DNA of 64,000 nucleotides from Sagittula sp. P11 (GTDB lineage: Bacteria; Pseudomonadota; Alphaproteobacteria; Rhodobacterales; Rhodobacteraceae), in the NCBI RefSeq assembly GCF_002814095.1, contig NZ_CP021913.1, forward strand, positions 2,170,001-2,234,000. The letters run 5' to 3'. The stretch's first letter is position 1, and the number at the start of each line of letters is the position of its first letter. The position numbers were made by a program, and so were the translations under genes. A model generated the notes under the pieces. The model was not told the DNA's origin. It ran no database searches and saw nothing but the letters and a program-made list of their open reading frames with translations. Shown here in pieces: positions 31,651 to 63,604 of this stretch.

Positions 31651-32715
31651 ATGGGAACGGGCTATAGAGGCACGTTCGTCATTTCCTGGTCGCAGACGGA
31701 AATAGACGGCCTGAAGGCCGCACCCACGTCTGCATTGACCGTCGGGGCCGCGTGGTCCTGGGCGGGTGAACCGGTGCGGGTCGACGGCCCGTCATCGGTC
31801 TTGCGATTGGACCAGGCTGACGGCGAAGCGGACTTGCGCAGACGGGCGGCACGCATGGTGCGGCGACTTGTCGGCGCCGCACTGACACAGAAGATACGGG
31901 TCGACGATGTCGAGGTGGAGCATCCGCTGACGGATTCCAGCTTTGTCGTGACCGACGGGTCGTCCAGCTACATGGTGACGCTGATCGAGGTGGAGCGCGG
32001 GTCGCGACCGCTCCTGATGTTCCTCGACGAGATCCCGCCCGCCGGGCGCGATCTGTGGATCGTGCATCACAACCTCGACCCGCTGGGCACCCACGCGGCC
32101 GGGGAACAGTCCAGCGGCGTGATCTGCTTCACGCCCGGCACACGCATCCTGACGCCCCACGGGCCGCTTCACGTCGAGGACCTGCGCGAAGGCGACATGG
32201 TGCAGACCAAGGACTCCGGGCCGCAACAGATCCAGTGGATCGGGTCGCGGCGCATGTCGGGGGCGCGGCTCTTTGCGATGCCGAAGCTCAGGCCGATCCG
32301 CATCCGTCCCGGCGCCTTCGGAATCGGCGAGCCGGACGATGAGATCCTCGTTTCGCCGGAACACCGCATGGTGGTGAAGGGTGTGGTGGCGCGGGCGCTG
32401 TTCAACACGCCCGAGGTGCTGGTGGCGGCGCGTGACCTCGTGAACGGCAGCACGGTGCGGTTGGACATGACCCTGAAGGAGGTGACCTACATCCACCTCC
32501 TGCTGTCCCGCCACGAGGTGCTGTTCGCCAACGGCGTCGAGACGGAGAGCTTTCATCCGGCCAACACCGCGCTCTCGACAATCTCGGAGGCGGATCGCGC
32601 CCGCCTGCTGAACCATCTGCCGCTTATCGCGGACAACCCGCATGCCTACGGCTCCTACGCGCGGCGCAACCTGTCGAGTTCCGAGGCGGCGATCCTGCTG
32701 CACGAGGCGGCCTAG
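31651..32715 (+). CDS. Hint (hedgehog/intein) domain protein
   Basis: A 354-residue protein. After about 155 residues of unassigned sequence comes a Hint domain (about 157-310) starting at the conserved Cys in ICFTPGTRILTPHGPLHVED, then LREGDMVQTKDSGPQQIQWIG, ILVSPEHRMVVKG and HEVLFANGVETESFHPAN. This is the Hint_2-type module common in Roseobacter surface and secreted proteins. Inteins end His-Asn at the splice junction; here the domain is followed by about 40 more residues and no second extein-like region, so splicing is unlikely and self-processing at the Cys is conceivable. No signal peptide or RTX repeat is visible. The start follows an A/T-rich leader. Confidence 0.85.
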   Translation: MGTGYRGTFVISWSQTEIDGLKAAPTSALTVGAAWSWAGEPVRVDGPSSVLRLDQADGEADLRRRAARMVRRLVGAALTQKIRVDDVEVEHPLTDSSFVVTDGSSSYMVTLIEVERGSRPLLMFLDEIPPAGRDLWIVHHNLDPLGTHAAGEQSSGVICFTPGTRILTPHGPLHVEDLREGDMVQTKDSGPQQIQWIGSRRMSGARLFAMPKLRPIRIRPGAFGIGEPDDEILVSPEHRMVVKGVVARALFNTPEVLVAARDLVNGSTVRLDMTLKEVTYIHLLLSRHEVLFANGVETESFHPANTALSTISEADRARLLNHLPLIADNPHAYGSYARRNLSSSEAAILLHEAA

Positions 32716-44956: not shown

Positions 44957-45109
44957 GAATGATTCCCTGAAGTTTGGCAGCCCTGCCCTCCCACAGACAG
45001 GTGGGCCAACTATTCCGGGGGGTATCATCATTTGGCCATAGTTAACTGAAAGTAAGGGTCTGCCACCGACCCGGTTTTTCCTGGGGTGTGGCGCAGCGGG
45101 TACGGGTTC

Positions 45110-45967
45110 GTGCGTAAGAGTGACAACACATATGCGATGCGGGCGGCGGTGATCGTCCCGGCCAGCAACGAGGCGGCGCTGATCGGCGGCTGCCTTTCGG
45201 CGCTTGTCGCGTCGGAGTGGCCCGGCCCGGATGGCGTGGAGGTCATCGTGGTGGCCAACGGCTGTACCGACGACACGGCAGAGCGGGCGCGGGACCATGC
45301 CGGGGCCTTTGCCGCGAAGGAGTGGCGGCTGACGGTGCTGGAGCTGGCGGAGGGCGGCAAGCTGGGCGCGCTGAACGCCGGTGACGCCGTGGTGTCGGCG
45401 CCGGTGCGGATCTACCTCGACGCCGATGTAACGGTCGGGCCGGGGGTGATCCGGCAGGTCGTCGAGGCGCTGGAGGTCGACGCCCCGCGCTATGCCAGCG
45501 GCCGGGTGGAGATCGCGGCGGAGGGCGCGGTGTCGCGCGCCTACGCCCGGATCTGGCGGCAGGTGCCTTTCATGGCGGCAGGTGTGCCGGGATGTGGTCT
45601 GTTCGCGGTCAATGCCGCGGGCCGCGCGCGCTGGGGGGCCTTTCCCGACATCATTTCCGATGACACCTTCGTGCGGCTGAACTTTACTCCGGAAGAGCGG
45701 GTGCGGGTCGACGCTGCCTACCGCTGGCCAATCGCCGAGGGTTTTTCCCGGCTCGTGCGTGTAAGACGCAGGCAGGATGCCGGTGTCGAGGAGATCGGGC
45801 GTATGTACCCGCATTTGCTGAAGAACGAGGACAAGGCGCCGCTGGGGGCGGGCGCGAAGCTGCGGATGGCGCTGCGCGATCCGCTGGGCTTCGGCGTCTA
45901 CTCCGGTGTCGCGCTGGCGGTGAAGGCCACCCGCGGGCGGCAGAGCGGCTGGAGTCGCGGGCGATGA
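45110..45967 (+). CDS. Glycosyltransferase family 2
   Basis: A GT-A fold transferase of about 285 residues. VIVPASNEAALIGGCLSALV begins the nucleotide-binding domain. IYLDADVTVGPGVI carries the DxD-type metal motif, and FPDIISDDTFVRLNF contains the catalytic acidic residues. Weakly hydrophobic C-terminal sequence may anchor it to the membrane. The start is uncertain: GTG 45110, ATG 45137 and GTG 45086 are all in frame and none has a strong ribosome-binding site. Its stop overlaps the flippase start by 4 bases, so the pair is one operon. It is divergent from the GT4 gene and probably acts on the same lipid-linked sugar. Confidence 0.85.
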   Translation: MRKSDNTYAMRAAVIVPASNEAALIGGCLSALVASEWPGPDGVEVIVVANGCTDDTAERARDHAGAFAAKEWRLTVLELAEGGKLGALNAGDAVVSAPVRIYLDADVTVGPGVIRQVVEALEVDAPRYASGRVEIAAEGAVSRAYARIWRQVPFMAAGVPGCGLFAVNAAGRARWGAFPDIISDDTFVRLNFTPEERVRVDAAYRWPIAEGFSRLVRVRRRQDAGVEEIGRMYPHLLKNEDKAPLGAGAKLRMALRDPLGFGVYSGVALAVKATRGRQSGWSRGR

Positions 45968-47319
45968 TCGCGCTGTCGAGGCTGCGCGGCGGGTCGCTGG
46001 GTGCGCGGGTGATGCGGTCCTCGCTGCTGACGGTGGGGGGCTTCGGCTTCAGCCAGATGGTGCGGCTGGCGTCGAACCTGATCCTGACGCGGCTGCTGTT
46101 CCCCGAGGCCTTCGGCCTGATGGCGCTGGTGATGGTCTTTTTGATGGGCCTGCACCAGTTCAGCGACGTGGGCGTGGTGCCCGCGATCATGCAGTCGAAG
46201 CGCGGCGACGACAGGGATTTCCTCGATACGGCGTGGACCATGCAGGTGGTGCGCGGCTTCGGCCTGTGGGTGGTGGCCTGCGCGCTGGCCTGGCCCGCCG
46301 CGCAGTTCTTCGGGGCGCCGCAACTGGCGCACATGCTGCCGGTGGCGGCGCTGACGCTGGTGATCGACGGGTTCAGGCCGACCAAGATGGTCACGGCGAA
46401 CCGCCACCTGATGCTGGAGCGGGTGACGCTTCTGGACATGGTCACGCAGCTGTCGGGCGTGGTGGCCGCGATCCTGCTGGCGTGGTGGTGGGGCAGCGTC
46501 TGGGCGCTGGTCGCCTCGGCGCTGGTCGGGTCCTGCGTGCAGCTTTACCTCAACACCCGCTTCCTGCCCGGCGTGCGCGACCGCCTGCGCTGGGACCAGA
46601 GCGCCGCGCAGGAGCTCATCTCGTTCGGCAAATGGGTCTTCCTCGCCACCGTGTGCGGGTTCTTCTACAATCAGGCCGACAAGATCCTGATGGGGAAATT
46701 CCTGCCGCTCGACGTGTTCGGCGTCTACAACATCGGGTTCTTCTGGGCGTCCTTCCCGCTGATGCTGGGCTACATGGTGACGCAGAAGATCCTGATCCCG
46801 ATCTACCGGGAGGCCCCCCCGCGCGCGAGCGCCCGCAACTTTGCCAAGCTGCGCAAGATGCGGGTGATCGTGACGAGCCTGCTGATGGTCTTTGTCGGCA
46901 TCTTCTCGGTACTGGGTGTGTGGCTGGTGGGAATGTTGTACGATGACCGTTACGCGGCGGCGGGGGCGGTGGCCGTGGTGCTGGCCTGCGCGCAGATGCC
47001 GTTGCTGATCGTGATGACCTACGACCAGGCGGCGCTGGCGGCGGGCGACTCGCGGCGGTTCTTCTACCTCGCGCTGACGCGCGCCGTGCTGATCTGGATC
47101 GGCCTGATCGTGGGCGTCTGGGAGCACGGCCTTCTGGGGGCGCTGATCGGCATGGGCGTGGCCTACCTGGCTGCCTACCCGGCGGTGGTCTGGCTGGCCG
47201 TGCGCATGGGCGCCTGGGACGCCGCGCATGACGTGGGTTTCGCATTGGTTGCAGTATGTTTAACATCGCTCGCATTGTGGGTGAATTGGGGCGCAATTGT
47301 GGCATTGGCGGCCATGTGA
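45964..47319 (+). CDS. Lipid-linked oligosaccharide flippase (Wzx/WzxC-like)
   Basis: A 451-residue integral membrane protein with about 12-14 hydrophobic segments. The N-terminal region SSLLTVGGFGFSQMVRLASN followed by LILTRLLFPEAFGLMALVMV is the polysaccharide-biosynthesis (MOP superfamily) start, and FGKWVFLATVCGFFYNQADK with ILMGKFLPLDVFGVYNIGFF marks the second half. It would flip an undecaprenyl-linked sugar, or another lipid-linked product, across the inner membrane. It follows GT2 with a 4-base overlap and precedes the PKS by 184 bases. A role in exporting the PKS/NRPS product is possible but less likely than polysaccharide export. Confidence 0.88.
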   Translation: MIALSRLRGGSLGARVMRSSLLTVGGFGFSQMVRLASNLILTRLLFPEAFGLMALVMVFLMGLHQFSDVGVVPAIMQSKRGDDRDFLDTAWTMQVVRGFGLWVVACALAWPAAQFFGAPQLAHMLPVAALTLVIDGFRPTKMVTANRHLMLERVTLLDMVTQLSGVVAAILLAWWWGSVWALVASALVGSCVQLYLNTRFLPGVRDRLRWDQSAAQELISFGKWVFLATVCGFFYNQADKILMGKFLPLDVFGVYNIGFFWASFPLMLGYMVTQKILIPIYREAPPRASARNFAKLRKMRVIVTSLLMVFVGIFSVLGVWLVGMLYDDRYAAAGAVAVVLACAQMPLLIVMTYDQAALAAGDSRRFFYLALTRAVLIWIGLIVGVWEHGLLGALIGMGVAYLAAYPAVVWLAVRMGAWDAAHDVGFALVAVCLTSLALWVNWGAIVALAAM

Positions 47320-47429: not shown

Positions 47430-47503
47430 GGGGGATTACCTAAAAATCGCCGTATTCACCCCGCATTTACCATTCAGGGTGGTGGCGTAGTGAGGGGCAT
47501 GGT

Positions 47504-50500
47504 GTGTTGGGCATGACGGACGCTTACGGCGAGAACGACATCGCAATTGTCGGGATGGCGGCGCATCTTCCGGGTGCGGCGGATATCGACGCCTACTGGC
47601 GCAACCTGCGCGACGGGGTGTCCTCCATCCGGCGCCTTTCCGAAGAAGAGCTGCGCGAGGCGGGCGAAGATCCCGGCCTGATGCGCCACCGCGACTACGT
47701 CCCCTTCGCCGCGCCGCTCGACGGGTTCGAGATGTTCGACGCGGATTTCTACGGGCTGTCGCCCAAGGACGCGGGCGTGATGGACCCGCAGCACCGCCAG
47801 TTCCTCGAATGCGCATGGGAGGCGCTGGAGACCGCGGGCCACGTGCCCGAAGGCTTCGACGGCCGGATCGGCGTCTTTGCCGGCTGCGGAATGGGGTCGT
47901 ATTTCTATTTCAACGTCTGTTCGAACCCGGACCTCGTGGACAGCACGGGGATGTTCCTGCTGCGGCACACCGGGAACGACAAGGACTTCATGACGACGCG
48001 CCTGTCGCACATCCTGAACCTGAAGGGCCCTTCGGTGAACCTTCAGACGGCGTGTTCGACCTCGCTCGTGGCGGTGCACTACGGGGTGCAGGCGCTGCTG
48101 AACGGCGAATGCGACATGGTGCTTGCGGGCGGCGTGACGATCGAGCTGCCGCAGAACCGCGGATACCTTTACAAGGAGAACGAGATCCTCAGCCCGGACG
48201 GCGCCTGCCACGCCTTCGACCACCGCGCGCAGGGCACGGTGTTCGGGTCCGGCGCGGGGGTCGTGGTGCTGCGCCGCATGGCCGACGCGGTGGCCGACGG
48301 CGATCACATCTGGGCGGTCATCAAGGGCACGGCGGTCAACAACGACGGTTCGGCCAAGGCGGGCTACCTCGCCCCTTCGGTGGAAGGGCAGGCAGAGGCC
48401 ATCGCCGAGGCGCAGGCCGTGGCGGGCGTCACCTCGGACACGGTGGATTACGTGGAATGCCACGGCACCGGCACCTACCTGGGCGACCCCATCGAGGTCG
48501 CCGCGCTGACGGAGGCCTTCCGCGAGACATCGGAGGCGGTGGGCCATTGCCGCATCGGGTCGGTCAAGACCAACATCGGGCACCTCGACACGGCGGCGGG
48601 CGTCGCCTCGCTGGTGAAGGCGTCGCTGGCGCTGCATCACCGGCAGATGCCGCCCTCGCTGGGCTTCGAGGCGCCGAACCCGGCCATCGGGTTCGAGGGC
48701 TCGCCCTTCGTGGTGAACGACCGGCTGACCGCCTGGGAGCGCGGGGCGCATCCGCGCCGCGCCGGGGTGAACTCGCTTGGCGTGGGCGGGACCAACGCGC
48801 ACGTCGTGCTGGAAGAGGCGCCGGAGATCGCCAGCGAAGAGAGCGACTGGCCGTTCCAGATCCTGACCGTTTCGGGCCGGTCGAAGGCCGCGCTCGAGGA
48901 CAACGCGGCGCGGCTGGCGGCGCATCTGCGGGCCCATCCCGAGCAGAAGCTGGCGGACGTGGCCTATACGCTGCGCGAAGGCCGCCGGGCCTTCGAAAAG
49001 CGCATGGTGGTGGTCGCCGAGAGCCACGAACAGGCGGCGCGCTACCTCGACGGCGACGCGCGGCGGCGGCACCTGCACGAGGCGCTGGAACGGCCCGAGG
49101 TGGTCTTCATGTTCCCCGGCGGCGGTGCGCAATACGCGGGCATGGCGCGCGATCTGTACGAGACGGAGCCGGTCTTTGCGGAGTGGATGGACCGCGGGCT
49201 GGAGCATCTGGCGGGGCTTGAGGCGGAGGCCGCGGGTGGTCTGGCGGCCGAGAAGGCGCAGACGCTGAAGGCGCTGTGGCTGCCGGAGACGGCAGAGGAC
49301 GTGGCGGCGGCGGATAGGGCGCTGCTGCGCCCTTCGGTCCAGCTTCCGCTGATAATGATCACCGAATACGCGCTGGCGCAGATGTGGATGGGCTGGGGCG
49401 TCACGCCGGTGGCGCTGACCGGCCATTCCATGGGCGAGAACACGGCGGCCTGCCTTGCAGGCGTGATGTCCTTCGAGGCCTGCATCGGCCTCGTGCACTT
49501 GCGCGGACGGCTGTTCGACACGGTGGAGCCGGGCGGGATGCTGTCGGTCGCGCTGTCGGCGGATGCGCTGCGGCCCATGCTGGGCGACGCGCTGGATCTT
49601 GCGGTGGTGAACGGCCCGGGGCTGTCGGTCGCCTCCGGCCCGGTGGCGGCGCTGGAGGACCTGCGCGCGCGGCTGGAGCGCGAGGGCATCGACTGCCAGC
49701 GCATCGGCATCGACGTGGCGGCGCACAGCCGGATGCTGGAGCCGATCCTTGCGGAGTTCGGGGCATACCTGCGGGGGCTGGAGCTGCGCGCCCCGGTGCT
49801 GCCGCTGACCTCCAACGTGACGGGCGCGCGGATGACCGACGCGCAGGCCACGGACCCGGACTACTGGGTGTCCCACCTGCGCAGCACGGTGCTGTTCGGC
49901 GACTGCATCGGCGCGGTCGCGGGCGAGGGGCGCGTGTTCCTCGAGGTCGGGCCGGGCAAGGCGCTTTCCTCGCTGGCGCGGCAGCATCCGTCGGTCGCGG
50001 CGCAAGCGGTTCTGTCGAGCCTCCGGCACCGGGACGAGGACGTGCCCGACGACCGTTTCATGTTCGAGGTGCTGGGGCGGCTGGCCGCGCTGGGCGTCGA
50101 AATCGACTGGGGCCAGGTCTGGGGCGAGGCGCGGCGCAAGCGCGTGGTGCTGCCGACCTACGCCTTCCAGCGGCAGAGCTATTTCATCGCGCCGGGCACG
50201 GCGCGGACGCAGGGCTCCACCTACCTGATGCGCAGCGACGAGATCGAGAGCTGGGGCTGGAAACCGGTCTGGCGCCCGCGCGCGGCAGAGGTCGAGGTCG
50301 ACGTGGCGCACGGGCTCAAGGACGCGGAGCGGCAGGTCTGGCTGGTGTTCCGCGACGAGGCGGGCGTCGGCACGCGGGTGTCCGCCCGGCTGCGCGCCGC
50401 CGGTCACGACGTGGTCGAGGTGCGCCCCGGCGACGCCTTTGCCCGGCTGTCCGACGGCAACTACGTGCTGGCGGCGGAGCGCGGGCGCGAGGGCTATGAT

Positions 50501-53500
50501 CTGCTTGTCGCGGACCTTTCGGCGCGCGGGCTGCTGCCCACCCGCATCGCGCACCTGTGGCTTCTGACGGAGGGCGAGGGGCACCGGCCCGGGTCGTCCT
50601 TCTTCCACCGGGTGCAGGAGCAGGGTTTCTACGCGCTGCTGTTCCTTGCGCAGGCGCTGGAGGCGGAGAACACGCCGCGCCCGCTGCACCTGACGGTCGT
50701 GACCAACGGCGCGGCCCGGCTGCGGGACGAGGCGCTGCCCTACCCGGCAAAGGCCACCATCGCCGGTCCCGCGCGGGTCATGCCGAAGGAACTGTCGGGC
50801 GTCACCGTCTCTACCCTCGACGTGGTACTGCCGGTCGCCGGGGAGGTGCCGTTCTGGGCGCGCACCAAGGCCGAGGCGGCGCGGGCCGCCGCGCTGGACG
50901 TGCTCGACATGCGCGTGCTGGAGGAACTGCTGGCCGAGCCGGGCAACCGCATCGCGGCGCTGCGCGGCGACCGCCGCTACGAATGCGCGATGAAGCCGGT
51001 GGCCCTGCCGCCGGCACAGGAGGTCCCGGAGGGCGGCGTGGTGCTGATCACCGGCGGCTTCGGCGGCATCGGCCTGACGCTGGCGGGCGACCTCGCCAAG
51101 CGCGGGGCGAAGCTGGCGCTTCTGGCGCGCAAGGCCCTGCCGGAGCGGTCTGAGTGGGACGATTACCTGATGCGCCACGCCCCGCAGGACGCGGGCGCCC
51201 GGCGCATCCGGGCGGTCATGGCGCTGGAGGCGCAGGGCGCCGAGGTCATGGTGCTGGCCGGTGACGTCTGCAACGCGTCGCGGATGCGCGAGGTCCGCGC
51301 CGAGGTCGAAAAGGCCTATGGCCGGATCACCGGCATCGTGCACGGCGCGGGCGTGATCGACGACGCGCCGATGCTGGCCAAGACACCGGCCAGCGTCGAG
51401 GACGTGTTCACGCCGAAGATCCACGGCACCGACGTGCTGGGCGAGGTCTTTCCCGACGGCGATGCCGACTGGATGGTGCTGTTTGCCTCGTCCTCCACCG
51501 TGACGGCGCCGGCCGGGCAGGTGGATTACGTCGCCGCCAACGAATTCCTCAACGCCTTTGCGCAGGCGCGGTCCGGCAAGACGCGGGTCGTGGCGCTGAA
51601 CTGGGGCATCTGGAACGAGGTCGGCATGGCGGCAGAGGCCGTGGCCGCGCGCACCGGCGACCTGCCGAAACCGCCGGTGACGGATGTGGCGCTGCCGATG
51701 CTGGACACCGCCAGTTTCGACGCGCAGGGCAACCGCGTCTTCCACGCCCACTGGTCGGTGAACGACTGGTGGATCGGAGAGCACCGCACCCGCGCGGGCG
51801 ACGCGCTGCTGCCCGGCACCGGCTACCTGACGCTGGCCGCCCATGCGCTGCGCGCCCACCACGAGGATGGCGCCTTCGAAGTGCGCGACCTGAACTTCCT
51901 GCGGCCGCTGAAGGTGGCGGAGCAGGGCACGCGCGAGGTCAAGGTGCGGCTGGAGCGGACGGATTCCGGCTATGATTTCGCGGTGCTGGCGGATGTGAGC
52001 CTGAACGGGCGGCACGGCTTTGCCGCCCATGCCGAGGGGGCGCTGTCGCTGATGCCGCTTTCGCGGCCCGAGGCGCTGGACCTCGACGCGATCCGCGCGC
52101 GCTGCGTGTCGAAGCGGGACGGCGAGGGCAGCAAGATGACCGCCGCGCAGGAGGTCCATCTCGCCTTCGGCCCGCGCTGGAAGGTGCTGGACCGCACGGC
52201 GCTGGGCCGGGGCGAGGGCATCGCGGAACTGTCGCTGGGCGCCGTGGCGGAGGGCGACCGCTGCCTCCTGCACCCGGCGCTTCTGGACATCGCGACCGGC
52301 TGGGCGATGGACCTGATCGAGGGCTACCAGGCGATGCACCTCTGGGTGCCGGTGCGCTATGCCTCGGTCAAGGTGCACGCGCCGCTGCCGGACCGCATCG
52401 TGTCCTGGGTGCGCAACGCCGCCGAGAACCGCGCCGACCGCGCGGCGGCGTCCTTCGACGTGACGCTGTGCGACACGGACGGGACCGTCGTGGCGGAGAT
52501 CAAGGGGTTCACCATCCGCAAGCTGGACAGCCCGGACGCCCTGTCGGCCACGCGCCTGACCTCGGCGGAGGTGGAGTTCGACGAACCGGGCGCGACGCAG
52601 GCGCTGTCGCCGGCGGAGGAACGGCTGGCCCACAACCTGTCGCAGGGCATCCTGCCCGACGAGGGGGCAGAGGCGTTCCGCCGGGTCCTTGCCTCGGGCG
52701 AGCGGCAGGTGGTGGTGTCCTCCATGGACCTGCCGTCGCTGGTCCGGCAGGCGTCGGTGGTGGAAAGCGTGGCGAGCCAGTCCTTCGACCGGCCGCAGCT
52801 GGACAGCGATTTCGTCGCGCCGGAGGGCGAGATCGAGGTGCGGCTGGCGGGCTTCTGGCAGGACCTTCTGGGCGTGTCGAACGTCGGTGTCGAGGACAGC
52901 TTCTTCGACCTCGGGGGGCATTCGCTGATCGCGGTGCGCCTGTTCGCCATGGTCAAGAAGGCGTTCCGCGTCGACTTCCCGATCTCGGTCCTGTTCGAGG
53001 CGCCGACGATCCGCGCCTGTGCCCGCCTGATCGAGGCGGAGATCGGCCCGGTCGGCGGCGACACACCGGACGTGCAGGCCGCGCCGGTGCGGCGGTTCAA
53101 GCACCTCGTTGCCATGCATGACGGCGACGGCGGCGCGCAGCAGCCGTTCTTCCTGATCGCGGGCATGTTCGGCAACGTGCTGAACCTGCGCCACCTCGCG
53201 CATCTGCTGGGCACCGACCGGCCGTTCTATGGCGTGCAGGCGCGCGGGCTGTACGGCGGCGAGGCGCCGCACGAGACGATCGAGGAGGCGGCCCGCGACT
53301 ACATCGCCGAAATCCGGCAGGTGCAGCCGGAAGGGCCTTACATGCTGGGCGGGTTCTCGGGCGGGGGGATCACCGCCTACGAGGTCGCCCGGCAGCTCGA
53401 GGCCGACGGGCAGGCGGTGTCGCTGGTCGTCCTTCTGGACACGCCGCTGCCGCAGCGCCGTCCGCTGTCGCTGCCCGACCGGCTGATCATCCAGGGCCAC

Positions 53501-53959
53501 AAGGCGCGCGAGAAGGGGGTGTTGTATCCCTTCGTCTGGGCGCGGAACCGCATCGCCTGGGAGTTTGCCAAGCGCCGCCAGTCCGGGGTGACGGAGGAGG
53601 CGCACGGGTTCCACAACGCCGAGATCGAGGCGGCCTTCTACCGTGCGATCTCTGCATACAATGTGCATCCATGGGATGGGCGGCTGGTGCTGTACCGTCC
53701 GCCGTTGAAGGGCAAGTGGCGGGTGTCCGGCGGAAAGCTGGTCAACTCGGAACGGACCTACGTGCTGGAGGACAACGACTGGCGCACGGTGGCGCCGCAG
53801 GTGGAGGTCCACGAGGTGCCGGGCGACCACGATTCCATGGTGCTGGAGCCGAACGTGCGTGTCCTGGCGGCGCTGATGCGCGACGCCATCGAGGCGGCGG
53901 AGGCCGGGCAGCGCGGCGGCGGAGAGGTGCTCCGCTTTCCGGGGCACGCGGCGGAGTAG
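47504..53959 (+). CDS. Type I polyketide synthase, KS-AT-KR-DH-ACP-TE
   Basis: A 2151-residue single-module PKS with all active sites visible. KS (about 12-440): Cys184 in TACSTSLVA, His320 in HGTGT, His360 in NIGHL. AT (about 540-860): FPGGGAQYAG, Ser642 in GHSMGE and His741 in AAHSRML; malonyl use is the best guess. KR (about 1180-1360): GGFGGIG at 1184, Ser1329, Tyr1342, and an IDD motif suggesting B-type reduction. DH (about 1405-1690): His1427 and Asp1595 in HPALLDIATG. ACP: Ser1807 in GGHSLIA. TE: Ser1952 in GGFSGGG and His2109. The KR-before-DH order is unusual. GTG 47504 has GAGGGG 6 bases upstream; ATG 47513 is an alternative. It is cotranscribed with GT2, NRPS and probably the PPTase gene. 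Confidence 0.95.
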   Translation: MLGMTDAYGENDIAIVGMAAHLPGAADIDAYWRNLRDGVSSIRRLSEEELREAGEDPGLMRHRDYVPFAAPLDGFEMFDADFYGLSPKDAGVMDPQHRQFLECAWEALETAGHVPEGFDGRIGVFAGCGMGSYFYFNVCSNPDLVDSTGMFLLRHTGNDKDFMTTRLSHILNLKGPSVNLQTACSTSLVAVHYGVQALLNGECDMVLAGGVTIELPQNRGYLYKENEILSPDGACHAFDHRAQGTVFGSGAGVVVLRRMADAVADGDHIWAVIKGTAVNNDGSAKAGYLAPSVEGQAEAIAEAQAVAGVTSDTVDYVECHGTGTYLGDPIEVAALTEAFRETSEAVGHCRIGSVKTNIGHLDTAAGVASLVKASLALHHRQMPPSLGFEAPNPAIGFEGSPFVVNDRLTAWERGAHPRRAGVNSLGVGGTNAHVVLEEAPEIASEESDWPFQILTVSGRSKAALEDNAARLAAHLRAHPEQKLADVAYTLREGRRAFEKRMVVVAESHEQAARYLDGDARRRHLHEALERPEVVFMFPGGGAQYAGMARDLYETEPVFAEWMDRGLEHLAGLEAEAAGGLAAEKAQTLKALWLPETAEDVAAADRALLRPSVQLPLIMITEYALAQMWMGWGVTPVALTGHSMGENTAACLAGVMSFEACIGLVHLRGRLFDTVEPGGMLSVALSADALRPMLGDALDLAVVNGPGLSVASGPVAALEDLRARLEREGIDCQRIGIDVAAHSRMLEPILAEFGAYLRGLELRAPVLPLTSNVTGARMTDAQATDPDYWVSHLRSTVLFGDCIGAVAGEGRVFLEVGPGKALSSLARQHPSVAAQAVLSSLRHRDEDVPDDRFMFEVLGRLAALGVEIDWGQVWGEARRKRVVLPTYAFQRQSYFIAPGTARTQGSTYLMRSDEIESWGWKPVWRPRAAEVEVDVAHGLKDAERQVWLVFRDEAGVGTRVSARLRAAGHDVVEVRPGDAFARLSDGNYVLAAERGREGYDLLVADLSARGLLPTRIAHLWLLTEGEGHRPGSSFFHRVQEQGFYALLFLAQALEAENTPRPLHLTVVTNGAARLRDEALPYPAKATIAGPARVMPKELSGVTVSTLDVVLPVAGEVPFWARTKAEAARAAALDVLDMRVLEELLAEPGNRIAALRGDRRYECAMKPVALPPAQEVPEGGVVLITGGFGGIGLTLAGDLAKRGAKLALLARKALPERSEWDDYLMRHAPQDAGARRIRAVMALEAQGAEVMVLAGDVCNASRMREVRAEVEKAYGRITGIVHGAGVIDDAPMLAKTPASVEDVFTPKIHGTDVLGEVFPDGDADWMVLFASSSTVTAPAGQVDYVAANEFLNAFAQARSGKTRVVALNWGIWNEVGMAAEAVAARTGDLPKPPVTDVALPMLDTASFDAQGNRVFHAHWSVNDWWIGEHRTRAGDALLPGTGYLTLAAHALRAHHEDGAFEVRDLNFLRPLKVAEQGTREVKVRLERTDSGYDFAVLADVSLNGRHGFAAHAEGALSLMPLSRPEALDLDAIRARCVSKRDGEGSKMTAAQEVHLAFGPRWKVLDRTALGRGEGIAELSLGAVAEGDRCLLHPALLDIATGWAMDLIEGYQAMHLWVPVRYASVKVHAPLPDRIVSWVRNAAENRADRAAASFDVTLCDTDGTVVAEIKGFTIRKLDSPDALSATRLTSAEVEFDEPGATQALSPAEERLAHNLSQGILPDEGAEAFRRVLASGERQVVVSSMDLPSLVRQASVVESVASQSFDRPQLDSDFVAPEGEIEVRLAGFWQDLLGVSNVGVEDSFFDLGGHSLIAVRLFAMVKKAFRVDFPISVLFEAPTIRACARLIEAEIGPVGGDTPDVQAAPVRRFKHLVAMHDGDGGAQQPFFLIAGMFGNVLNLRHLAHLLGTDRPFYGVQARGLYGGEAPHETIEEAARDYIAEIRQVQPEGPYMLGGFSGGGITAYEVARQLEADGQAVSLVVLLDTPLPQRRPLSLPDRLIIQGHKAREKGVLYPFVWARNRIAWEFAKRRQSGVTEEAHGFHNAEIEAAFYRAISAYNVHPWDGRLVLYRPPLKGKWRVSGGKLVNSERTYVLEDNDWRTVAPQVEVHEVPGDHDSMVLEPNVRVLAALMRDAIEAAEAGQRGGGEVLRFPGHAAE

Positions 53960-53962
53960 GTC

Positions 53963-54938
53963 ATGGCGCGTGTGCTGGTCGTATCGCTGAACTACCGGAC
54001 CCCGGAGATGACCCTGCGCTCGCTGCGCGCGGCGCTGGGCGCGCTGGACGGTGTCGAGGCCGACGTGGTCTGCGTCGACAACGACAGCGGCGACGGGTCT
54101 TTCGAGGCGATCCGGGACGCGGTGGAGGCCGAGGGGCTGGCCGTGCGCGTGATCCAGTCGGGCCACAACGGCGGCTTCGGCGCGGGCAACAACGTTGGCA
54201 TCGCGGCGCGGATGGCGGACGGGTCGGCGCCCGACTACGTCTACCTGCTGAACTCCGACGCCTTTCCCGCACCCGGTGCGATTGCCGCGCTGGTCCGCCA
54301 CATGGAGGCGCATCCGGACACAGGCATCACCGGGTCGCGCATCGTGGGCGAGGACGGGGAACCGCACTGGACCGCCTTCCGCTTCCCCTCTGTCGCGTCG
54401 GAGCTGGAGGGCGCGGCGCGCCTCGGGCCGATCTCGCGGATGCTGGAGGCGCACAGGGTGCCGCTGGGCGTGCCCGAGGCGACGCGCCCCGTCGACTGGC
54501 TGGCGGGGGCCTCGATGATGATCCGGCAAAGCCTGCTGGACCGCATCGGCGGCTTTGACGAGACCTTCTTCCTCTACTTCGAGGAGACCGACCTGTGCCT
54601 GCGCGCGGCGCGTGCCGGGCACGGTACACATTATGTATGCGAAAGCGAAGTGATGCACATCGGCTCTGTCTCGACGGGGATGCGCCGGTGGCAGCGGGTG
54701 CCGGGCTTCTGGCTGGACAGCCGCTGGCACTACTTCTCGAAGAACCACGGGCGGGCCTATGCCATGGCCGCGACCGCCGCGCATGTGGCCGGCGGCCTGC
54801 TGTGGCGGCTGAGGGTGCTGTTGCAGAAGAAGCCGCCCGCCGATCCCGCGCATTTCCTGCGCGATCTCGTGAAACACGACCTGAATGCCATGCTGCGCCC
54901 GCTTCCGGCGGCAGCCGGCCCGCAACGGAGGGAAGACC

Positions 54939-54952
<14 letters not shown>
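53963..54952 (+). CDS. Glycosyltransferase family 2 (rhamnosyltransferase-like) between PKS and NRPS
   Basis: A 329-residue GT2 enzyme. VSLNYRTPEMTLRSLRAAL at the N terminus, the VDNDSGDGS motif, GHNGGFGAGNNVGI and YLLNSDAFPAPGAI (DxD-like) are the WbbL/rhamnosyltransferase pattern. FDETFFLYFEETDLCLRA carries the catalytic acidic cluster. It starts 3 bases after the PKS stop, and its end overlaps the NRPS start by 14 bases, so it is translated with both. The tight coupling suggests it glycosylates the PKS/NRPS product, or an acceptor that carries it. A role in the neighbouring polysaccharide is the alternative. Confidence 0.9.
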
Positions 54953-59462
<4,510 letters not shown>

Positions 59463-59483
59463 CCTGTGCCGCCCTCGCCCTGC

Positions 59484-59511
59484 CTTCATCTTGGCCGAAA
59501 TACCTCCGGGG
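59484..59511 (-). repeat. Intergenic repeat, copy 2 (inverted relative to 32824)
   Basis: On the minus strand this reads GGTATTTCGGCCAAGATGAA, as in copy 1 at 32824-32851, with nearly the same G/C flank. It lies in the gap between the NRPS and the PPTase gene and directly precedes the hairpin at 59515-59535. Confidence 0.6.
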
Positions 59512-59514
59512 GGT

Positions 59515-59535
59515 CCGGGGGGCGGCGCCCCCCGG
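59515..59535 (+). terminator. G/C-rich hairpin between NRPS and PPTase genes
   Basis: CCGGGGGGC pairs with GCCCCCCGG around a 3-base GGC loop, 52 bases after the NRPS stop. No T-run follows. It may attenuate, terminate or stabilise the PKS-GT2-NRPS message, which would lower PPTase expression relative to the synthases. Confidence 0.4.
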
Positions 59536-59584
59536 CGGGTCGGGCCGCGTCAGCGGTCCGAAACCCCGTGGAAAGCATGTCGAG

Positions 59585-60232
59585 ATGACCGGCCCGCATC
59601 AGGCCCTTCTGGCGCTGATCGAGCGGCTGCATGCACCCGGTGTACACTGGGGCATAGTGCGGATCGACGAAGTGGCGGAGCTTACCCCTTCGGAGGCGGC
59701 CTCCGTCGCCCGGGCGGTGCCTGCCCGCAGGCAGGAGTTCGCCGCCGGGCGCCTTGCCGTCCGCCGCGCCCGCGCGGGCCTTGGCCTGCCGTCTGACGAT
59801 CCGGCCGACGGTTTGCCCGCCGGACCTGACCGGCTGCCGCTCTGGCCTGACGGGATGACCGGCTCCATCAGCCACGCCGCCGGGCTTGCGGTGGCCGCGG
59901 TCGCCCGCCCGCCGGTGCGTCTCGGCATCGACCTGGAAGAGGACAAACCGCTGGACCCCGAGCTGGTGGAGGAGATCTGCCTTCCTGCCGAAGGGGCCAT
60001 GCCGCCGATCCGGGTGTTCTCTGCCAAGGAGGCGATCTTCAAGGCGGAGTATCCCCGCACCCGCGTGCTGCACGGTTTCCACGGCATCGAGGTCGACCTC
60101 GCCCGGGGCCGCGCCCGCTACACCGATCATCCGGAGGTCGCCGTAATTCCGCCCGAATCGCGGCGGCCCCTTCCCATCCTTCAGGCGGTCGGTGGCGGGC
60201 TGATCCTGTCGCTTTGCCGGACCGGGGCCTAG
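59585..60232 (+). CDS. 4'-phosphopantetheinyl transferase (EntD-like)
   Basis: A 215-residue Sfp/EntD-type PPTase that loads the phosphopantetheine arm of coenzyme A onto carrier-protein serines. RRQEFAAGRLAVRRA is the P1 region. WPDGMTGSISHA is the EntD-like P1b motif. GIDLE (Asp116, Glu118) and FSAKEAIFKAEYP (Glu149, Lys153) supply the Mg-binding and catalytic residues. Its place directly after the NRPS makes the PKS ACP (Ser1807) and NRPS carrier (Ser1413) the natural targets. ATG 59585 is preferred because upstream in-frame codons cross a repeat and hairpin. A 122-base gap separates it from the NRPS. Confidence 0.9.
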   Translation: MTGPHQALLALIERLHAPGVHWGIVRIDEVAELTPSEAASVARAVPARRQEFAAGRLAVRRARAGLGLPSDDPADGLPAGPDRLPLWPDGMTGSISHAAGLAVAAVARPPVRLGIDLEEDKPLDPELVEEICLPAEGAMPPIRVFSAKEAIFKAEYPRTRVLHGFHGIEVDLARGRARYTDHPEVAVIPPESRRPLPILQAVGGGLILSLCRTGA

Positions 60233-60380
60233 CATGGCATCACCAATGTGTGTCCAATCCCGACAGGATCGCTGCATTCGCCCTATCCTGCGGAAATTGC
60301 GGCGAAACTGTGGCGGTGTTTCGCGATCCGGCGACGCTCTGTTTCCGGGAAACCGACCATCGGGTCGTGGCTTAAATATG

Positions 60381-60398
60381 GCAAATCGCCTAGATTGC
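60381..60398. promoter_or_regulatory. 18-bp inverted repeat upstream of Wzz-like gene (site 1)
   Basis: GCAAATCGCCTAGATTGC has the same left half, the same 6-base spacing and a right half one base different from the PKS site at 47412-47429. It lies about 100 bases upstream of the Wzz-like start. Confidence 0.45.
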
Positions 60399-60422
60399 GG
60401 CCAGAAGAGGGCGCGTTTCGGT

Positions 60423-60440
60423 CGCAATCGGTCAATTGCG
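60423..60440. promoter_or_regulatory. 18-bp inverted repeat upstream of Wzz-like gene (site 2)
   Basis: CGCAATCGGTCAATTGCG is a perfect 6-bp inverted repeat with a 6-base spacer, 24 bases after site 1. Its half-site ATTGCG resembles those of the other two dyads. Two dyads in tandem suggest cooperative binding of a repressor. Confidence 0.45.
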
Positions 60441-60499
60441 TTGGCCAGATCGGGGCAGCCCTCTCCGCATCGGGGGCCAACTTTGCGGGAGCATGTGAC

Positions 60500-61828
60500 A
60501 TGAACCAGTTCCAGTCCGTCGGAGAAATCTTCGCCGCCCTGCGCCGCCGTGCGTGGGTGATCATCGGCATCTTCCTCGTCGGGTGCGTGATCTCGGTCGA
60601 CTATGCCCTGGTGCAGCAGAAGGTCTACGAGGCGACCGCCGTGGTCCAGATCGAGGACGCCCGCGTTTCCAGCACCGCCACGGCCACCGTGTCCGACGCC
60701 AACGAGGCCTCGCGCCGGCTGCAGCTGATCGAGCAGCGGCTGATGTCGCGCGACAACCTCATGACCCTGATGGACAAGTACGACCTGTTTTCCGACGACC
60801 CGGAGCGCAACGACGGCGAGCGCATCTACATGATGCGGCAGGCGGCGCGGATCACCCCGATCACCAATCCAGCCCCGACCTTTACCGCCGCCGCGCAGGC
60901 GCCGTCGGGGCTGATGATTTCCGTCATGCTGCCCGACCCGGACAAGGCCGCGACCGTGGCGAACGACCTGATGAACAAGGTGATCACCGAATCCCGCGAC
61001 CGCTCGGCCCGGCAGGCGAGCGAGACGCTGGCCTTCTACGAGACCGAGGAAGCCCGCGTGAACGCGGAGATCGTCGCGCTGGAAAACCGCATCGCGGAGT
61101 ATAAGCAGGCCAATTCCGCGCAGCTTCCCGCCGGCGTGGCGGCGCTGCGCACCCAGCTGACCACGCTGCGCGAGACGGAGCTGGACCTGGCGCAGGAGAT
61201 CATCACCATCCAGTCCGACACCGCCCGCAAGCGGCCCGAGGAACTGGCCCGGCAGGTCGCCCAGCTTGAGGATCAGCGCGCGCTGGTTGCTGCCCGCGCG
61301 ACCGAGATCGAGGGCCAGATCGCATCCGCCCCCGAGGTGGAACGCCAGCTCAGCCAGCTCGAACGCGAGATGGACCGCCTGAAGGACCAGTACAGCGTCA
61401 TCACCCGCGGCAAGGCCGAGGCCGAGATGGGCCAGGCGTTGCAGGACCGTCAGGCCGGTGGCCGCTACGAGGTGCTGGAAACCGCGCTGGTGCCGGAGAA
61501 CCCGATGACCTCCAGCCGCAAGAAGATCGCCGGTATCGGCGCCTTCGCGAGCCTTCTGGCCGGTCTGATGGTGGCGCTTGGGCTGGAGGTGATGAACCCC
61601 GCGATCCGCAGCCAGCAGCAGATGGAGCGCCTTCTGGGCATCCAGCCGGTGGTGGCGATCCCGGTGATCAGCAACCGCCGCGACCGGACCTGGGGCGGGC
61701 TGAAGTTCCTGGCGCGGGCGCTGGGAATCCTTGCGCTGGTGGGTGGCGTGACCGCCTGGCTGGCGAAGACCTCTGGCCTGGGCGCGCTGTTCGGCAGCGG
61801 CACGCCGCGCCGCGCCGTCCGCGGCTGA
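60500..61828 (+). CDS. Wzz/GumC-like polysaccharide chain-length determinant
   Basis: A 442-residue inner-membrane protein of the Wzz/PCP family. The first membrane helix is about residues 20-42 (AWVIIGIFLVGCVISVDYAL). A long periplasmic region (about 45-370) is coiled-coil in its second half (ARVNAEIVALENRIAEYKQA and QLEREMDRLKDQYSVITRGK). A Pro-containing ALVPENPMTSSRKK segment precedes the second helix (about 375-395). It sets chain length or couples polymerisation to export. The partner ATPase lies just downstream on the opposite strand (61985-63457). ATG 60500 is chosen for the MNQFQSVGEIFAALRRRAW start. Its 267-base leader holds two operator-like dyads. Confidence 0.88.
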   Translation: MNQFQSVGEIFAALRRRAWVIIGIFLVGCVISVDYALVQQKVYEATAVVQIEDARVSSTATATVSDANEASRRLQLIEQRLMSRDNLMTLMDKYDLFSDDPERNDGERIYMMRQAARITPITNPAPTFTAAAQAPSGLMISVMLPDPDKAATVANDLMNKVITESRDRSARQASETLAFYETEEARVNAEIVALENRIAEYKQANSAQLPAGVAALRTQLTTLRETELDLAQEIITIQSDTARKRPEELARQVAQLEDQRALVAARATEIEGQIASAPEVERQLSQLEREMDRLKDQYSVITRGKAEAEMGQALQDRQAGGRYEVLETALVPENPMTSSRKKIAGIGAFASLLAGLMVALGLEVMNPAIRSQQQMERLLGIQPVVAIPVISNRRDRTWGGLKFLARALGILALVGGVTAWLAKTSGLGALFGSGTPRRAVRG

Positions 61829-61984: not shown

Positions 61985-63457
61985 TCAGTAGGCGTAGCGG
62001 CCCACGTCCACGCCTTCGGCCTTGTTCAGGATCATGCCCAGAAGCGGCGTTTCGGTGCCGAGCCGGCGTTCCACTTCCTTTATCTCGCGCTCGGTCGTCA
62101 GGCCGCCGCCGACCACCAGCAGCACGCCGTCGAACAGCGGCTGGAAGGCGATGACGTCGTCGAAGGACAGCGCCGGCGGCAGGTCAAACAGCATCACGTC
62201 GGGGCGCAGTTCCTCTTCGATCCGTTCGAGCGTGGAGCGGGTGCGCGGGTCCTGCAGCAGTTCGGAGGCATAGGGCTCCGTCACCGTGTTCAGGCCGAAG
62301 GCGATGTTGTGCCCGGCGTTGAAGTCGTTTTCGCCCAGCCGGATCAGGTGATCCTCAGGCGCGATCCTGCCGCGCAGCATGTCGCCGATGGGGCCGGGGC
62401 TGTCGACGCCCAGCACGCGGTGCAGGTTCGGGCGCCGCATGTCGAAGTCCATCACCAGCGTGCGGGTGTTTTCCTGCCGGGACAGCGAGATGGCGAGGTT
62501 GGCGACGGTGAAGGTCTTGCCGCAGCCCTTGCCGGGCGAGGTGACAGCGACCCGTTTCCAGCCGCGTTCGGCCAGCGTGTGCATCAGCCGGGTCCGCAGC
62601 ACGTCGAAGGTGGCATGAGCCGGGTCGAGCCGGTCCGCCGTGACGACCCGGTTGTGGTTGAGCTGGCCCAGCTCGAACCGCGCCACGGGCAGGTCGAGCC
62701 ATGCTGTATCGGGCTGCGGGCGTCTGGCCTCCGGACGGGGCGCCGGTGCGGGTGCCGGGGCGGGTCCGGGGGCCGGGGCCGGGTGGCTGCGCTGTTCCGG
62801 CGTGAGCGAAAGCGGCGGCATGGCCGGGACGGGCCGCGCGGGCGGGGTGTCCGCCTTCGCCTCGTCTGTGTCTGTGTCTGTGTCTGTGTCGTCTTCGTCG
62901 GCCGCGGCTTCGCGGCGGGCCTCTTCGGCCAGACGTGCCTCTTCGGCGCGCCGAAGCTTTGCCGCCTGCCGCGCTTCCGCGAGCTTCCGGCGCCGTTCCT
63001 CGGCTTCCGCCTCGGCACGTTCCAGTTCTTCTGCCTGACGGCGGGCTTCGGCCTCCGCCTCGGCGCGGGTTTGTTCCTCTGCCTGACGGCGGGCTTCGGC
63101 TTCCGCGTCGGTACGGGCGTGTTCCTCGGCTTGGCGCTGCGCTTCGGCTTCCGCATCGGCGCTGGCCTGATCCTCGGCCTCGCGCCGGGCGTCCGCTTCT
63201 GCCTGTTCCTCTGCCCTGCGGCGGGCTTCGGCGGAGGCGAGGCGGGCGGCCTCGCGGGCGCGGGCGAGGCGGTTGGCTTCGGGGTCGGCCGGGTGCTGGG
63301 CTCCTTCCTCGCGGGCGCGGCGGGCCAGACGTTCCTCCCGCGTTTCCAGCGGGGGAACCGGGGCCATGTCCTTCGAGGTGTCCTCCTGCACGGAGGGCTC
63401 TCCGGGTGTCAGGGGCTTGCGCTTGCGGCGAAACTTGCGGCTGTCCATCATGTTCAT
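61985..63457 (-). CDS. CpsD/CapB-like tyrosine-autokinase-family ATPase with repeat-rich coiled-coil N terminus
   Basis: A 490-residue protein. Residues about 40-200 are an Ala/Glu/Arg-rich coiled coil made partly of 16-residue repeats (AEAEARRQAEE). A (DT)n acidic stretch and a Pro/Ala-rich linker follow. The ATPase domain (about 280-490) has Walker A SPGKGCGKTFTVANLA, Walker A' LVMDFDMRRPNLHRVL and Walker B VMLFDLPPALSFDD, as in bacterial tyrosine kinases working with Wzz-like proteins. The C terminus GVDVGRYAY has only two Tyr and no Tyr cluster, so autophosphorylation is doubtful. The in-frame extension to 63577 overlaps promoter-like sequence, so the 63457 start is preferred, but this is uncertain. 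Confidence 0.82.
   Translation of the reverse strand: MNMMDSRKFRRKRKPLTPGEPSVQEDTSKDMAPVPPLETREERLARRAREEGAQHPADPEANRLARAREAARLASAEARRRAEEQAEADARREAEDQASADAEAEAQRQAEEHARTDAEAEARRQAEEQTRAEAEAEARRQAEELERAEAEAEERRRKLAEARQAAKLRRAEEARLAEEARREAAADEDDTDTDTDTDEAKADTPPARPVPAMPPLSLTPEQRSHPAPAPGPAPAPAPAPRPEARRPQPDTAWLDLPVARFELGQLNHNRVVTADRLDPAHATFDVLRTRLMHTLAERGWKRVAVTSPGKGCGKTFTVANLAISLSRQENTRTLVMDFDMRRPNLHRVLGVDSPGPIGDMLRGRIAPEDHLIRLGENDFNAGHNIAFGLNTVTEPYASELLQDPRTRSTLERIEEELRPDVMLFDLPPALSFDDVIAFQPLFDGVLLVVGGGLTTEREIKEVERRLGTETPLLGMILNKAEGVDVGRYAY
62864..62890 (-). repeat. Hexanucleotide repeat (GTCTGT)n inside the CpsD-like gene
   Basis: Four complete GTCTGT units plus a partial fifth occur in tandem, encoding Asp-Thr pairs. 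The 6-base unit keeps the reading frame, so slippage would change the length of the acidic linker without breaking the protein. Confidence 0.8.
63015..63165 (-). repeat. 48-bp imperfect tandem repeats encoding coiled coil
   Basis: About three imperfect 48-base units, for example around 63027, 63074 and 63122, each encode a 16-residue block of the type D/E-AEAEARRQAEE. The repeat explains the biased composition and may allow recombination-driven length change. Confidence 0.7.
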
Positions 63458-63575
63458 GCCTTGTGCCCTCGGGCTCCTGCCCATCCGGCGCAGGCGGCGC
63501 GCGCGCCGGTTGATATCTCTGCGCCCCTCGGACGGGCGCAAATGCTCAGACCCGTTAGACCAGTTGAATCTGGCC

Positions 63576-63604
63576 ATAATATGGTGATCCGAAGGGATTG
63601 TTTA
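63576..63604 (-). promoter_or_regulatory. Candidate promoter of the CpsD-like gene
   Basis: On the minus strand TAAACA (63604-63599) and TATTAT (63581-63576) are 17 bases apart. The -10 element overlaps the ATG of the longest possible reading frame (63577), which argues for the downstream start at 63457. Confidence 0.4.

What the first reader, a model, noticed from the sequence alone, without database searches (positions are those of the whole stretch)
47504..60232. Two-gene NRPS/PKS assembly line in which a condensation-less, formyltransferase-led NRPS loads a single PKS module
Seen: the NRPS has formyltransferase, A and carrier domains but no C and no TE. The PKS has KS, AT, KR, DH, ACP and TE. 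Known: an N-terminal formyltransferase-A-T unit is a loading module, and a terminal TE releases the product. Inferred: order is NRPS then PKS, opposite to gene order, and one pass would yield a very small product (an N-formyl amino acid extended by one C2 unit, then dehydrated). A glycosyltransferase is embedded between the two genes. I recognise no characterised pathway with exactly this set.
Basis: partly seen in the sequence, partly recalled or inferred. Interest (0 to 1): 0.82.

Follow-up and report, generated by a model that had tools for sequence, protein, structure and literature searches.

The report
Polysaccharide-linked formylglycine NRPS-PKS cassette
A bacterium carries a tiny two-enzyme assembly line, kept beside polysaccharide genes in many related bacteria, that probably builds a small formylated acid for its slime coat; no product has been seen and the link to the coat is inferred from gene neighbourhood.

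Summary
In detail: PKS (KS-AT-KR-DH-ACP-TE), GT2, then a condensation-less NRPS led by a formyltransferase. The genome shows no condensation domain and no other modular KS, so the line looks complete. FT-A(Gly)-carrier units loading a PKS are known (conglobatin, oxazolomycin); that part is not new. Unusual is the fixed setting: 107 of 296 sampled family genomes match the NRPS, all 107 also match the PKS, PKS>NRPS order holds in 60 of 60 loci examined, and 58 of those 60 carry Wzx/Wzz/Wzy-like/WecB-type polysaccharide genes within 18 kb, against 0 of 20 control regions. The catalytic residues inspected are invariant in 61 sequences. Best reading: glycine is loaded, formylated, probably alpha-hydroxylated, extended by one C2 unit, reduced (perhaps dehydrated) and released as a small acid used in or on an exopolysaccharide. 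Assembly order is well supported; product and polysaccharide link are inferred. Ten paper searches found no account of this role. New variant of a known kind.

The parts
47504..53959 (+). Type I PKS, one module: KS-AT-KR-DH-ACP-TE (2151 aa; start may be ATG 47513)
47534..48667 (+). Ketosynthase; Cys, His, His invariant in 61 of 61 aligned sequences
49103..49969 (+). Acyltransferase (GHSMGEN ... AAHS), probably malonyl-specific (motif reading recalled)
51035..51619 (+). Ketoreductase; GGxGGxG, Ser, Tyr, Lys and the last Asp of the 'LDD' site invariant (roles recalled)
51695..52531 (+). Dehydratase with motifs HRTxxGxALLPGTGYL and D[LI]ATGWA; His and Asp invariant
52844..53032 (+). Acyl carrier protein
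53165..53893 (+). Terminal thioesterase; Ser, Asp, His invariant
53963..54952 (+). GT2-family glycosyltransferase between PKS and NRPS; moderate model (pLDDT 64.9), best Foldseek match WrtF fucosyltransferase (TM 0.49 by query)
54939..59462 (+). NRPS FT-A(N)-LLM-A(C)-T, 1507 aa, no C and no TE; its start overlaps the GT gene end by 14 nt
54939..55793 (+). Formyltransferase domain; Asn, His, Asp invariant in 61 of 61
56403..57035 (+). Adenylation domain, N-terminal part (to A4)
57084..58136 (+). Luciferase-like FMN monooxygenase (TIGR04020) inserted in the A domain; most conserved of the NRPS regions measured
58164..58952 (+). Adenylation domain, C-terminal part; specificity residues D I L Q Y G M I W (first three from the N-terminal part), read as glycine from memory
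59094..59279 (+). Peptidyl carrier protein domain
59585..60232 (+). 4'-phosphopantetheinyl transferase
60248..61828 (+). Wzz-type polysaccharide chain-length determinant
61985..63577 (-). Tyrosine autokinase-like protein of polysaccharide systems (NCBIfam matches below their cut-offs)
45964..47319 (+). Wzx-type polysaccharide flippase
45086..45967 (+). GT2 glycosyltransferase upstream of the flippase

Best explanation
A two-protein assembly line that makes a small non-sugar building block for an exopolysaccharide. Proposed steps: (1) the PPTase primes the carrier domains; (2) the A domain loads glycine on the PCP and the FT domain formylates it; (3) the inserted FMN monooxygenase hydroxylates the glycine alpha-carbon, giving N-formyl-alpha-hydroxyglycyl-S-PCP; (4) the KS takes this starter and adds one malonyl-derived C2 unit, the KR reduces and the DH may dehydrate; (5) the TE releases a C4 acid or lactone (4-formamido-hydroxy-butanoic or -butenoic type) or passes it to a sugar acceptor; (6) the product is placed in or on the polysaccharide made by the neighbouring Wzx/Wzz-type genes. 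Shown: domains, intact motifs, gene order, conservation, neighbourhood. Inferred from related enzymes: substrate, order of steps, hydroxylation site. Inferred from neighbourhood only: the polysaccharide destination.
For: Domain content. Catalytic residues inspected invariant in 61 of 61. No C domain genome-wide and one KS in a large modular ORF. PKS matched in all 107 of 107 NRPS-positive family genomes; two PKS-only genomes (G132 weak, G161 at a contig start); in G152, one of the 107, the PKS match is weak. PKS>NRPS on one strand in 60 of 60 loci. Polysaccharide-gene homologues within 18 kb in 58 of 60 loci against 0 of 20 control regions (Fisher p 6.5e-17). Neighbour type changes once on the NRPS tree and once on the PKS tree (300 shuffles: mean 17.6 and 17.8, minimum 11 and 12). 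Same pairing among polysaccharide genes in Aminobacter, Shinella and Rhizobium plasmids. Related monooxygenases act at an alpha-carbon: PuwE (proposed, PMC4219810 passages) and the myxothiazol domain (PMC9396620 passage). FT-A(Gly)-PCP starters for PKSs.
Against: No chemical evidence for any product. Neighbourhood does not prove that the product enters the polymer. Cassette and neighbours may simply descend together; no species-tree control was made. In an Aliiroseovarius plasmid the same kind of FT-A-LLM-T gene feeds KS-AT-KR-DH-ACP-C-A-T-TE beside XrtD, not Wzx/Wzz genes. Two of six pairs outside the family (L147, L151) and the Methylobacterium plasmid (L112) showed no or only weak polysaccharide-gene matches in the stretch fetched. 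The mid GT has no match at E<=1e-6 in 12 of 17 loci examined outside the 60, so it is not part of a universal core. An MFS transporter gene lies about 14 kb beyond the cassette (L092 14349-15611) and could serve a free product. The glycine call rests on a recalled code, and position 299 varies. The DH lacks the usual Gln/His after its Asp (recalled), so dehydration is uncertain. The A-LLM model was unusable (pLDDT 41.4).
Confidence: 0.5

Rival explanations
1. The line makes a free, secreted small molecule that merely sits beside polysaccharide genes, perhaps because both serve life on surfaces.
For: [quoted passage not shown] passages, legends and tables). Free products are the usual case (recalled). 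The Aliiroseovarius variant lies away from Wzx/Wzz genes. An MFS transporter gene lies downstream in the own genome.
Against: 58 of 60 loci sit among polysaccharide genes against 0 of 20 controls. Whether exporter, resistance or receptor genes are constant partners was not tested: the query set held none.
Confidence: 0.25
2. The product is a diffusible signal that controls polysaccharide or biofilm formation.
For: Linkage to polysaccharide genes; a small, simple product fits a signal (inference).
Against: No direct evidence either way; regulator and receptor genes were not among the queries.
Confidence: 0.1
3. The monooxygenase drives cleavage: the hydroxylated N-formylglycyl thioester loses formamide, leaving glyoxylyl-S-PCP, so that the PKS makes a 4-oxo (aldehyde) acid without nitrogen.
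For: The myxothiazol monooxygenase domain hydroxylates glycine and cleaves the residue (PMC9396620 passage).
Against: It would make the conserved FT look wasteful; no direct evidence.
Confidence: 0.07
4. The monooxygenase N-hydroxylates, making an N-formyl-N-hydroxy (hydroxamate) metal-binding group.
For: N-formyl-N-hydroxy groups are known siderophore ligands (recalled).
Against: The nearest solved relative, PuwE (333 bits), is linked to alpha-carbon hydroxylation.
Confidence: 0.06

Closest known systems
FT-A(Gly)-PCP loading proteins CongA (conglobatin) and OzmO (oxazolomycin)
   Same: Formyltransferase-led NRPS unit predicted to load glycine and hand it to a PKS (PMC4504003 passages)
   Different: The passages read mention no inserted monooxygenase; those lines have several PKS modules and a proposed ATP-dependent cyclodehydratase (CongE/OzmP) for an oxazole; no polysaccharide context appears in the passages read
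Myxothiazol glycine alpha-hydroxylating monooxygenase domain (MtaG, name recalled)
   Same: Assembly-line monooxygenase acting on glycine (PMC9396620 passage); its place inside an A domain is recalled
   Different: There it acts at the chain end and yields a carboxamide; here it would act on the starter unit, which is then extended
PuwE monooxygenase domain (PDB 6ket, puwainaphycin)
   Same: Nearest solved relative of the inserted domain (333 bits)
   Different: PuwE is described as a PKS module, aminotransferase, monooxygenase and NRPS module acting on a fatty-acyl chain (PMC4219810 passages)
LgrA, linear gramicidin initiation (PDB 6mfz)
   Same: Formyltransferase-led initiation (domain order recalled); best whole-protein match in the PDB by summed score
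   Different: LgrA goes on to peptide modules with condensation domains (recalled), not to a PKS
Unassigned 'NRPS-like / Type I PKS' cluster in a Roseobacteraceae genome survey
   Same: Probably the same locus, reported as syntenic in four genera (PMC10608839)
   Different: No domain analysis, product or polysaccharide link in the parts read; identity with this locus not checked by sequence

Membership tests
FT-led NRPS initiation module | N-terminal formyltransferase with Asn-His-Asp, A and PCP domains | tested here: met
FT-led NRPS initiation module | No condensation domain in the module | tested here: met
FT-led NRPS initiation module | FT formylates the PCP-bound amino acid | not testable with these tools
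   needs an enzyme assay
Interrupted adenylation domain with TIGR04020 monooxygenase | TIGR04020 over cut-off, flanked by the two halves of one A domain | tested here: met
   474.6 against 244.45 bits; A halves on either side
Glycine-specific A domain | Specificity residues matching the glycine signature | tested here: inconclusive
   D I L Q Y G M I W read from the alignment; glycine signature recalled; no predictor run
KS that accepts an NRPS-bound aminoacyl chain | KS groups with hybrid NRPS/PKS KSs rather than with fatty-acyl KSs | tested here: inconclusive
   Pairwise scores only: five best rows generically named (588-440 bits), then ClbK 371.5, ClbC 365.4, 6mhl 361.6, 5elp 354.4, CurL 337.6; PikA/DEBS about 250-299; FAS 214. 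No tree
Oxazole-forming formylglycine PKS (conglobatin/oxazolomycin type) | Cyclodehydratase CongE/OzmP next to the loading gene | not tested
   No dedicated search; no such family appeared among the ORFs scanned
Wzx/Wzy-type polysaccharide locus | Wzx, Wzz and glycosyltransferase genes adjoining | tested here: met
Wzx/Wzy-type polysaccharide locus | Wzy polymerase gene in the locus | tested here: inconclusive
   L092 17142-18800 has no Pfam match but is 41% identical to a Ruegeria protein with a sub-cut-off Wzy_C match

The most novel reading that the evidence does not exclude
A modular NRPS-PKS assembly line whose conserved job, in roughly a third of the sampled genera of its family, is to make a non-carbohydrate building block of an exopolysaccharide, the release domain (TE here, a condensation domain in a Deinococcus relative) passing the formylated acyl unit to the glycan.
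Probability: 0.4. Interest if true: 0.8.

Novelty: new variant of a known kind. Interest (0 to 1): 0.58.

Why it matters
Assembly lines are usually treated as makers of strain-specific secondary metabolites. This one is kept, with the catalytic residues inspected intact, in about a third of the sampled genera of its family and stays with one of two polysaccharide locus types. If its product is part of the surface polymer, a common class of orphan clusters would be reclassified as cell-surface chemistry, and the polymer would carry an unusual formylated group that might matter for biofilms, attachment or metal binding. The pairing of a formyltransferase and a likely glycine hydroxylase on one starter unit is directly testable enzymology.

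Tried and rejected
Structure of the A-LLM-A-T region: model unusable (mean pLDDT 41.4), not interpreted. GT model moderate (pLDDT 64.9); Foldseek gives general GT2 enzymes with TM about 0.5 by query, so no acceptor can be named.

Residual condensation domain in the FT-A linker: no Pfam match at E<=1; the linker is the least conserved NRPS region measured (0.47).

The genome-contig scan with the whole NRPS returned 6 loci: five close relatives (Sagittula, three Mameliella, Antarctobacter) and one distant match (31%); its peptide patterns came from one sequence and it was not used for counts.

Paper searches (10 of 10 used) showed no description of a PKS/NRPS serving a polysaccharide in these bacteria; one search was mostly wasted because 'puwe' matched place names. 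Most subscription journals are not held, so this is weak evidence of absence. KS phylogeny and MIBiG/antiSMASH comparison were not done.

Dropped rows and limits: in the tree label test 9 of 61 sequences (L049, L063, L067, L070, L071, L072, L085, L087, L090) were left out because by my hand labelling they fitted neither neighbour type clearly (52 used: 27 and 25). Only 60 of the 107 family genomes with a hit were examined for synteny. The polysaccharide query set came from the window and from relatives' loci of the same kind, which favours the test loci over the controls; it shows linkage, not a general gene census. The same set held no regulators, receptors or resistance genes.
Full report
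Observation. The window is G000:C1:2170001-2234000 of a 5.58-Mb, 99.99%-complete genome. On the + strand lie a PKS (47504-53959; KS-AT-KR-DH-ACP-TE), a GT2 glycosyltransferase (53963-54952) and an NRPS (54939-59462) with formyltransferase, adenylation and carrier domains and neither C nor TE. The NRPS gene overlaps the GT gene by 14 nt.

Completeness of the line. No condensation domain was found in the genome. Of 8 KS-domain hits, only the one in the window lies in a large modular ORF; the other open frames are 418-523 aa. Two ACPS-family hits exist, one of them the cassette PPTase. So no hidden C domain or further modular PKS was seen.

Integrity. Across the window and 60 family relatives (61 sequences), the residues inspected are invariant: FT Asn/His/Asp, carrier Ser, the monooxygenase stretch WTPERHF, KS Cys/His/His, AT Ser/His, KR Ser/Tyr/Lys and GGxGGxG, DH His and Asp, ACP Ser, TE Ser/Asp/His (catalytic roles recalled). 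The monooxygenase is the most conserved of the NRPS regions measured (mean 0.83), the FT-A linker the least (0.47). The specificity positions read D I L Q Y G M I W; all but the fifth (most common letters M29, L13, Y10) are invariant or vary in one sequence. From memory this is close to the glycine signature. Of the two LgrA A domains aligned the second, which I recall as glycine-specific, scores higher (200.5 against 169.6 bits), but its alignment is also longer, so this is weak support.

Distribution. The formyltransferase part matches 107 of 296 sampled genomes of the family at E<=1e-30 (106 of 295 genera); most places lie in open frames of about 1475-1691 aa, but several do not (361, 370, 757, 944, 1113, 1138, 1202, 1877 and 1904 aa). 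The PKS C-terminal half matches 109 of 296, including all 107; the two extra are a weak match (G132) and a fragment at a contig start (G161), and within the 107 the PKS match of G152 is weak. In the class sample 16 of 389 match at E<=1e-25 (7 in the family, 9 outside, 4 of those 9 in frames near 1500 aa); in the phylum sample 21 of 397 at E<=1e-30 (13 in the family, 7 elsewhere in the class, 1 in another class).

Order and neighbourhood. In 60 fetched loci (60 of the 107 genomes) the order PKS>NRPS on one strand holds in 60 of 60; a match to the mid GT is found in 60 of 60 by tblastn and resolved as an ORF between them in 50; a PPTase match is found in 53 of 60 and resolved in the cassette order in 42. 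Matches to Wzz, Wzx, a Wzy-like protein, WecB-type, kinase or two GT queries, outside the core, occur in 58 of 60 loci (53 with two or more kinds) and in 0 of 20 control 18-kb regions from 20 of the same genomes; the misses are L049, cut by a contig end, and L071. The queries came from the window and from loci of this kind, which favours the test loci. Two neighbour types, labelled by hand, change once on the NRPS tree and once on the PKS tree for 52 labelled sequences, against a shuffled mean of 17.6 and 17.8 in 300 shuffles. This shows stable linkage but is also what joint vertical descent would give. In the own genome the polysaccharide region goes on past the window with epimerase/Gfo-Idh, GT2, WecG/TagA/CpsF, GMC oxidoreductase, SDR, an MFS transporter and a Wzy-like gene.

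Outside the sampled family loci. Annotated plasmids show the pair (PKS 49-62% identical over nearly its whole length) among polysaccharide genes in Parasedimentitalea, Ruegeria (two records), Paracoccus, Aminobacter and Shinella; in Aminobacter and Shinella PKS and NRPS are divergent and a PPTase follows the NRPS. A Rhizobium plasmid (L111) has the pair with Wzx-, PPTase- and WecB-type matches, a Methylobacterium plasmid (L112) the pair with only weak sugar-gene matches. Of 9 loci from 8 further genomes, 6 have the NRPS with monooxygenase plus the PKS (5 into the TE's end, 1 cut by the fetched end); 4 of those 6 have polysaccharide-gene matches and L147 and L151 do not have clear ones; 1 (L148) is a PKS-NRPS variant; 2, both from the genome of another class, lack monooxygenase and PKS matches. 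The mid GT has no match at E<=1e-6 in 12 of the 17 loci. A Deinococcus plasmid has a separate FT gene, an A-LLM-A-T gene and a PKS ending in a condensation domain instead of a TE, among polysaccharide genes. An Aliiroseovarius plasmid has an FT-A-LLM-T gene followed by KS-AT-KR-DH-ACP-C-A-T-TE near XrtD.

Mechanism. FT-A(Gly)-PCP proteins that load PKSs are described for conglobatin and oxazolomycin, and FT action on the PCP-bound residue is cited there as shown for linear gramicidin (PMC4504003 passages). Related assembly-line monooxygenases act at an alpha-carbon: the PuwE domain, nearest solved relative (333 bits), is proposed to help make a 3-amino-2-hydroxy acyl chain (PMC4219810 passages), and the myxothiazol domain is described as hydroxylating glycine and cleaving it (PMC9396620 passage). 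The KS scores higher against named hybrid KSs than against PikA/DEBS or FAS KSs, in keeping with an aminoacyl starter, though the five best rows bear generic names and no tree was made. I therefore propose N-formyl-alpha-hydroxyglycine as starter, one malonyl extension, ketoreduction, possible dehydration and TE release, giving a C4 formamido-hydroxy acid or lactone. The DH motifs look variant (recalled comparison), so dehydration is uncertain. That this product enters the neighbouring polysaccharide is inferred from linkage only.

Literature. Ten searches showed no account of this role. PMC10608839 (passages, legends and tables; [quoted passage not shown] PMC8383342, PMC9860996 and PMC11225332 (passages) list type I PKS or NRPS clusters in related bacteria that may include it, without a polysaccharide link in the passages seen; PMC4359443 and PMC11355689 (passages) do not bear on it directly.

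Verdict. The C-less, FT-led loading of a PKS is known chemistry. The inserted monooxygenase, the single module and the near-constant polysaccharide setting make this a new variant of a known kind, widespread and without an assigned product in the papers seen.

Noticed in passing
window 47474-55039 (-) and 55293-59489 (-): Very long antisense open frames (2521 and 1398 aa) lie opposite the PKS and NRPS; most likely shadow ORFs of high-GC coding DNA.
   Followed up: no
window 40552-43509 (+): 985-aa protein with an RTX calcium-binding repeat match upstream of the polysaccharide genes.
   Followed up: no
window 31651-32715 (+): Hint-domain (Hint_2) protein; a Hint-domain gene is also annotated near the cassette in Parasedimentitalea (L025 1379-2812).
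   Followed up: no
L113 15007-26992: Deinococcus relative: the PKS ends in a condensation domain instead of a thioesterase, and the FT is a separate gene.
   Followed up: partly
L114 14992-28731: Aliiroseovarius plasmid: an FT-A-LLM-T gene precedes KS-AT-KR-DH-ACP-C-A-T-TE beside a VPLPA-CTERM protein and XrtD.
   Followed up: partly
window 51695-52531: DH domain with motifs that differ from the usual ones (one extra residue before the Pro, no Gln/His after the Asp; comparison recalled), yet its His and Asp are invariant in 61 of 61.
   Followed up: partly
L115 23317-27231: Ruegeria plasmid: UbiA prenyltransferase, GtrA, FAD-binding oxidoreductase and SDR genes near the cassette.
   Followed up: no
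L092 14349-15611 (-): MFS transporter gene about 14 kb beyond the window's polysaccharide kinase gene start; a possible exporter, not tested.
   Followed up: no
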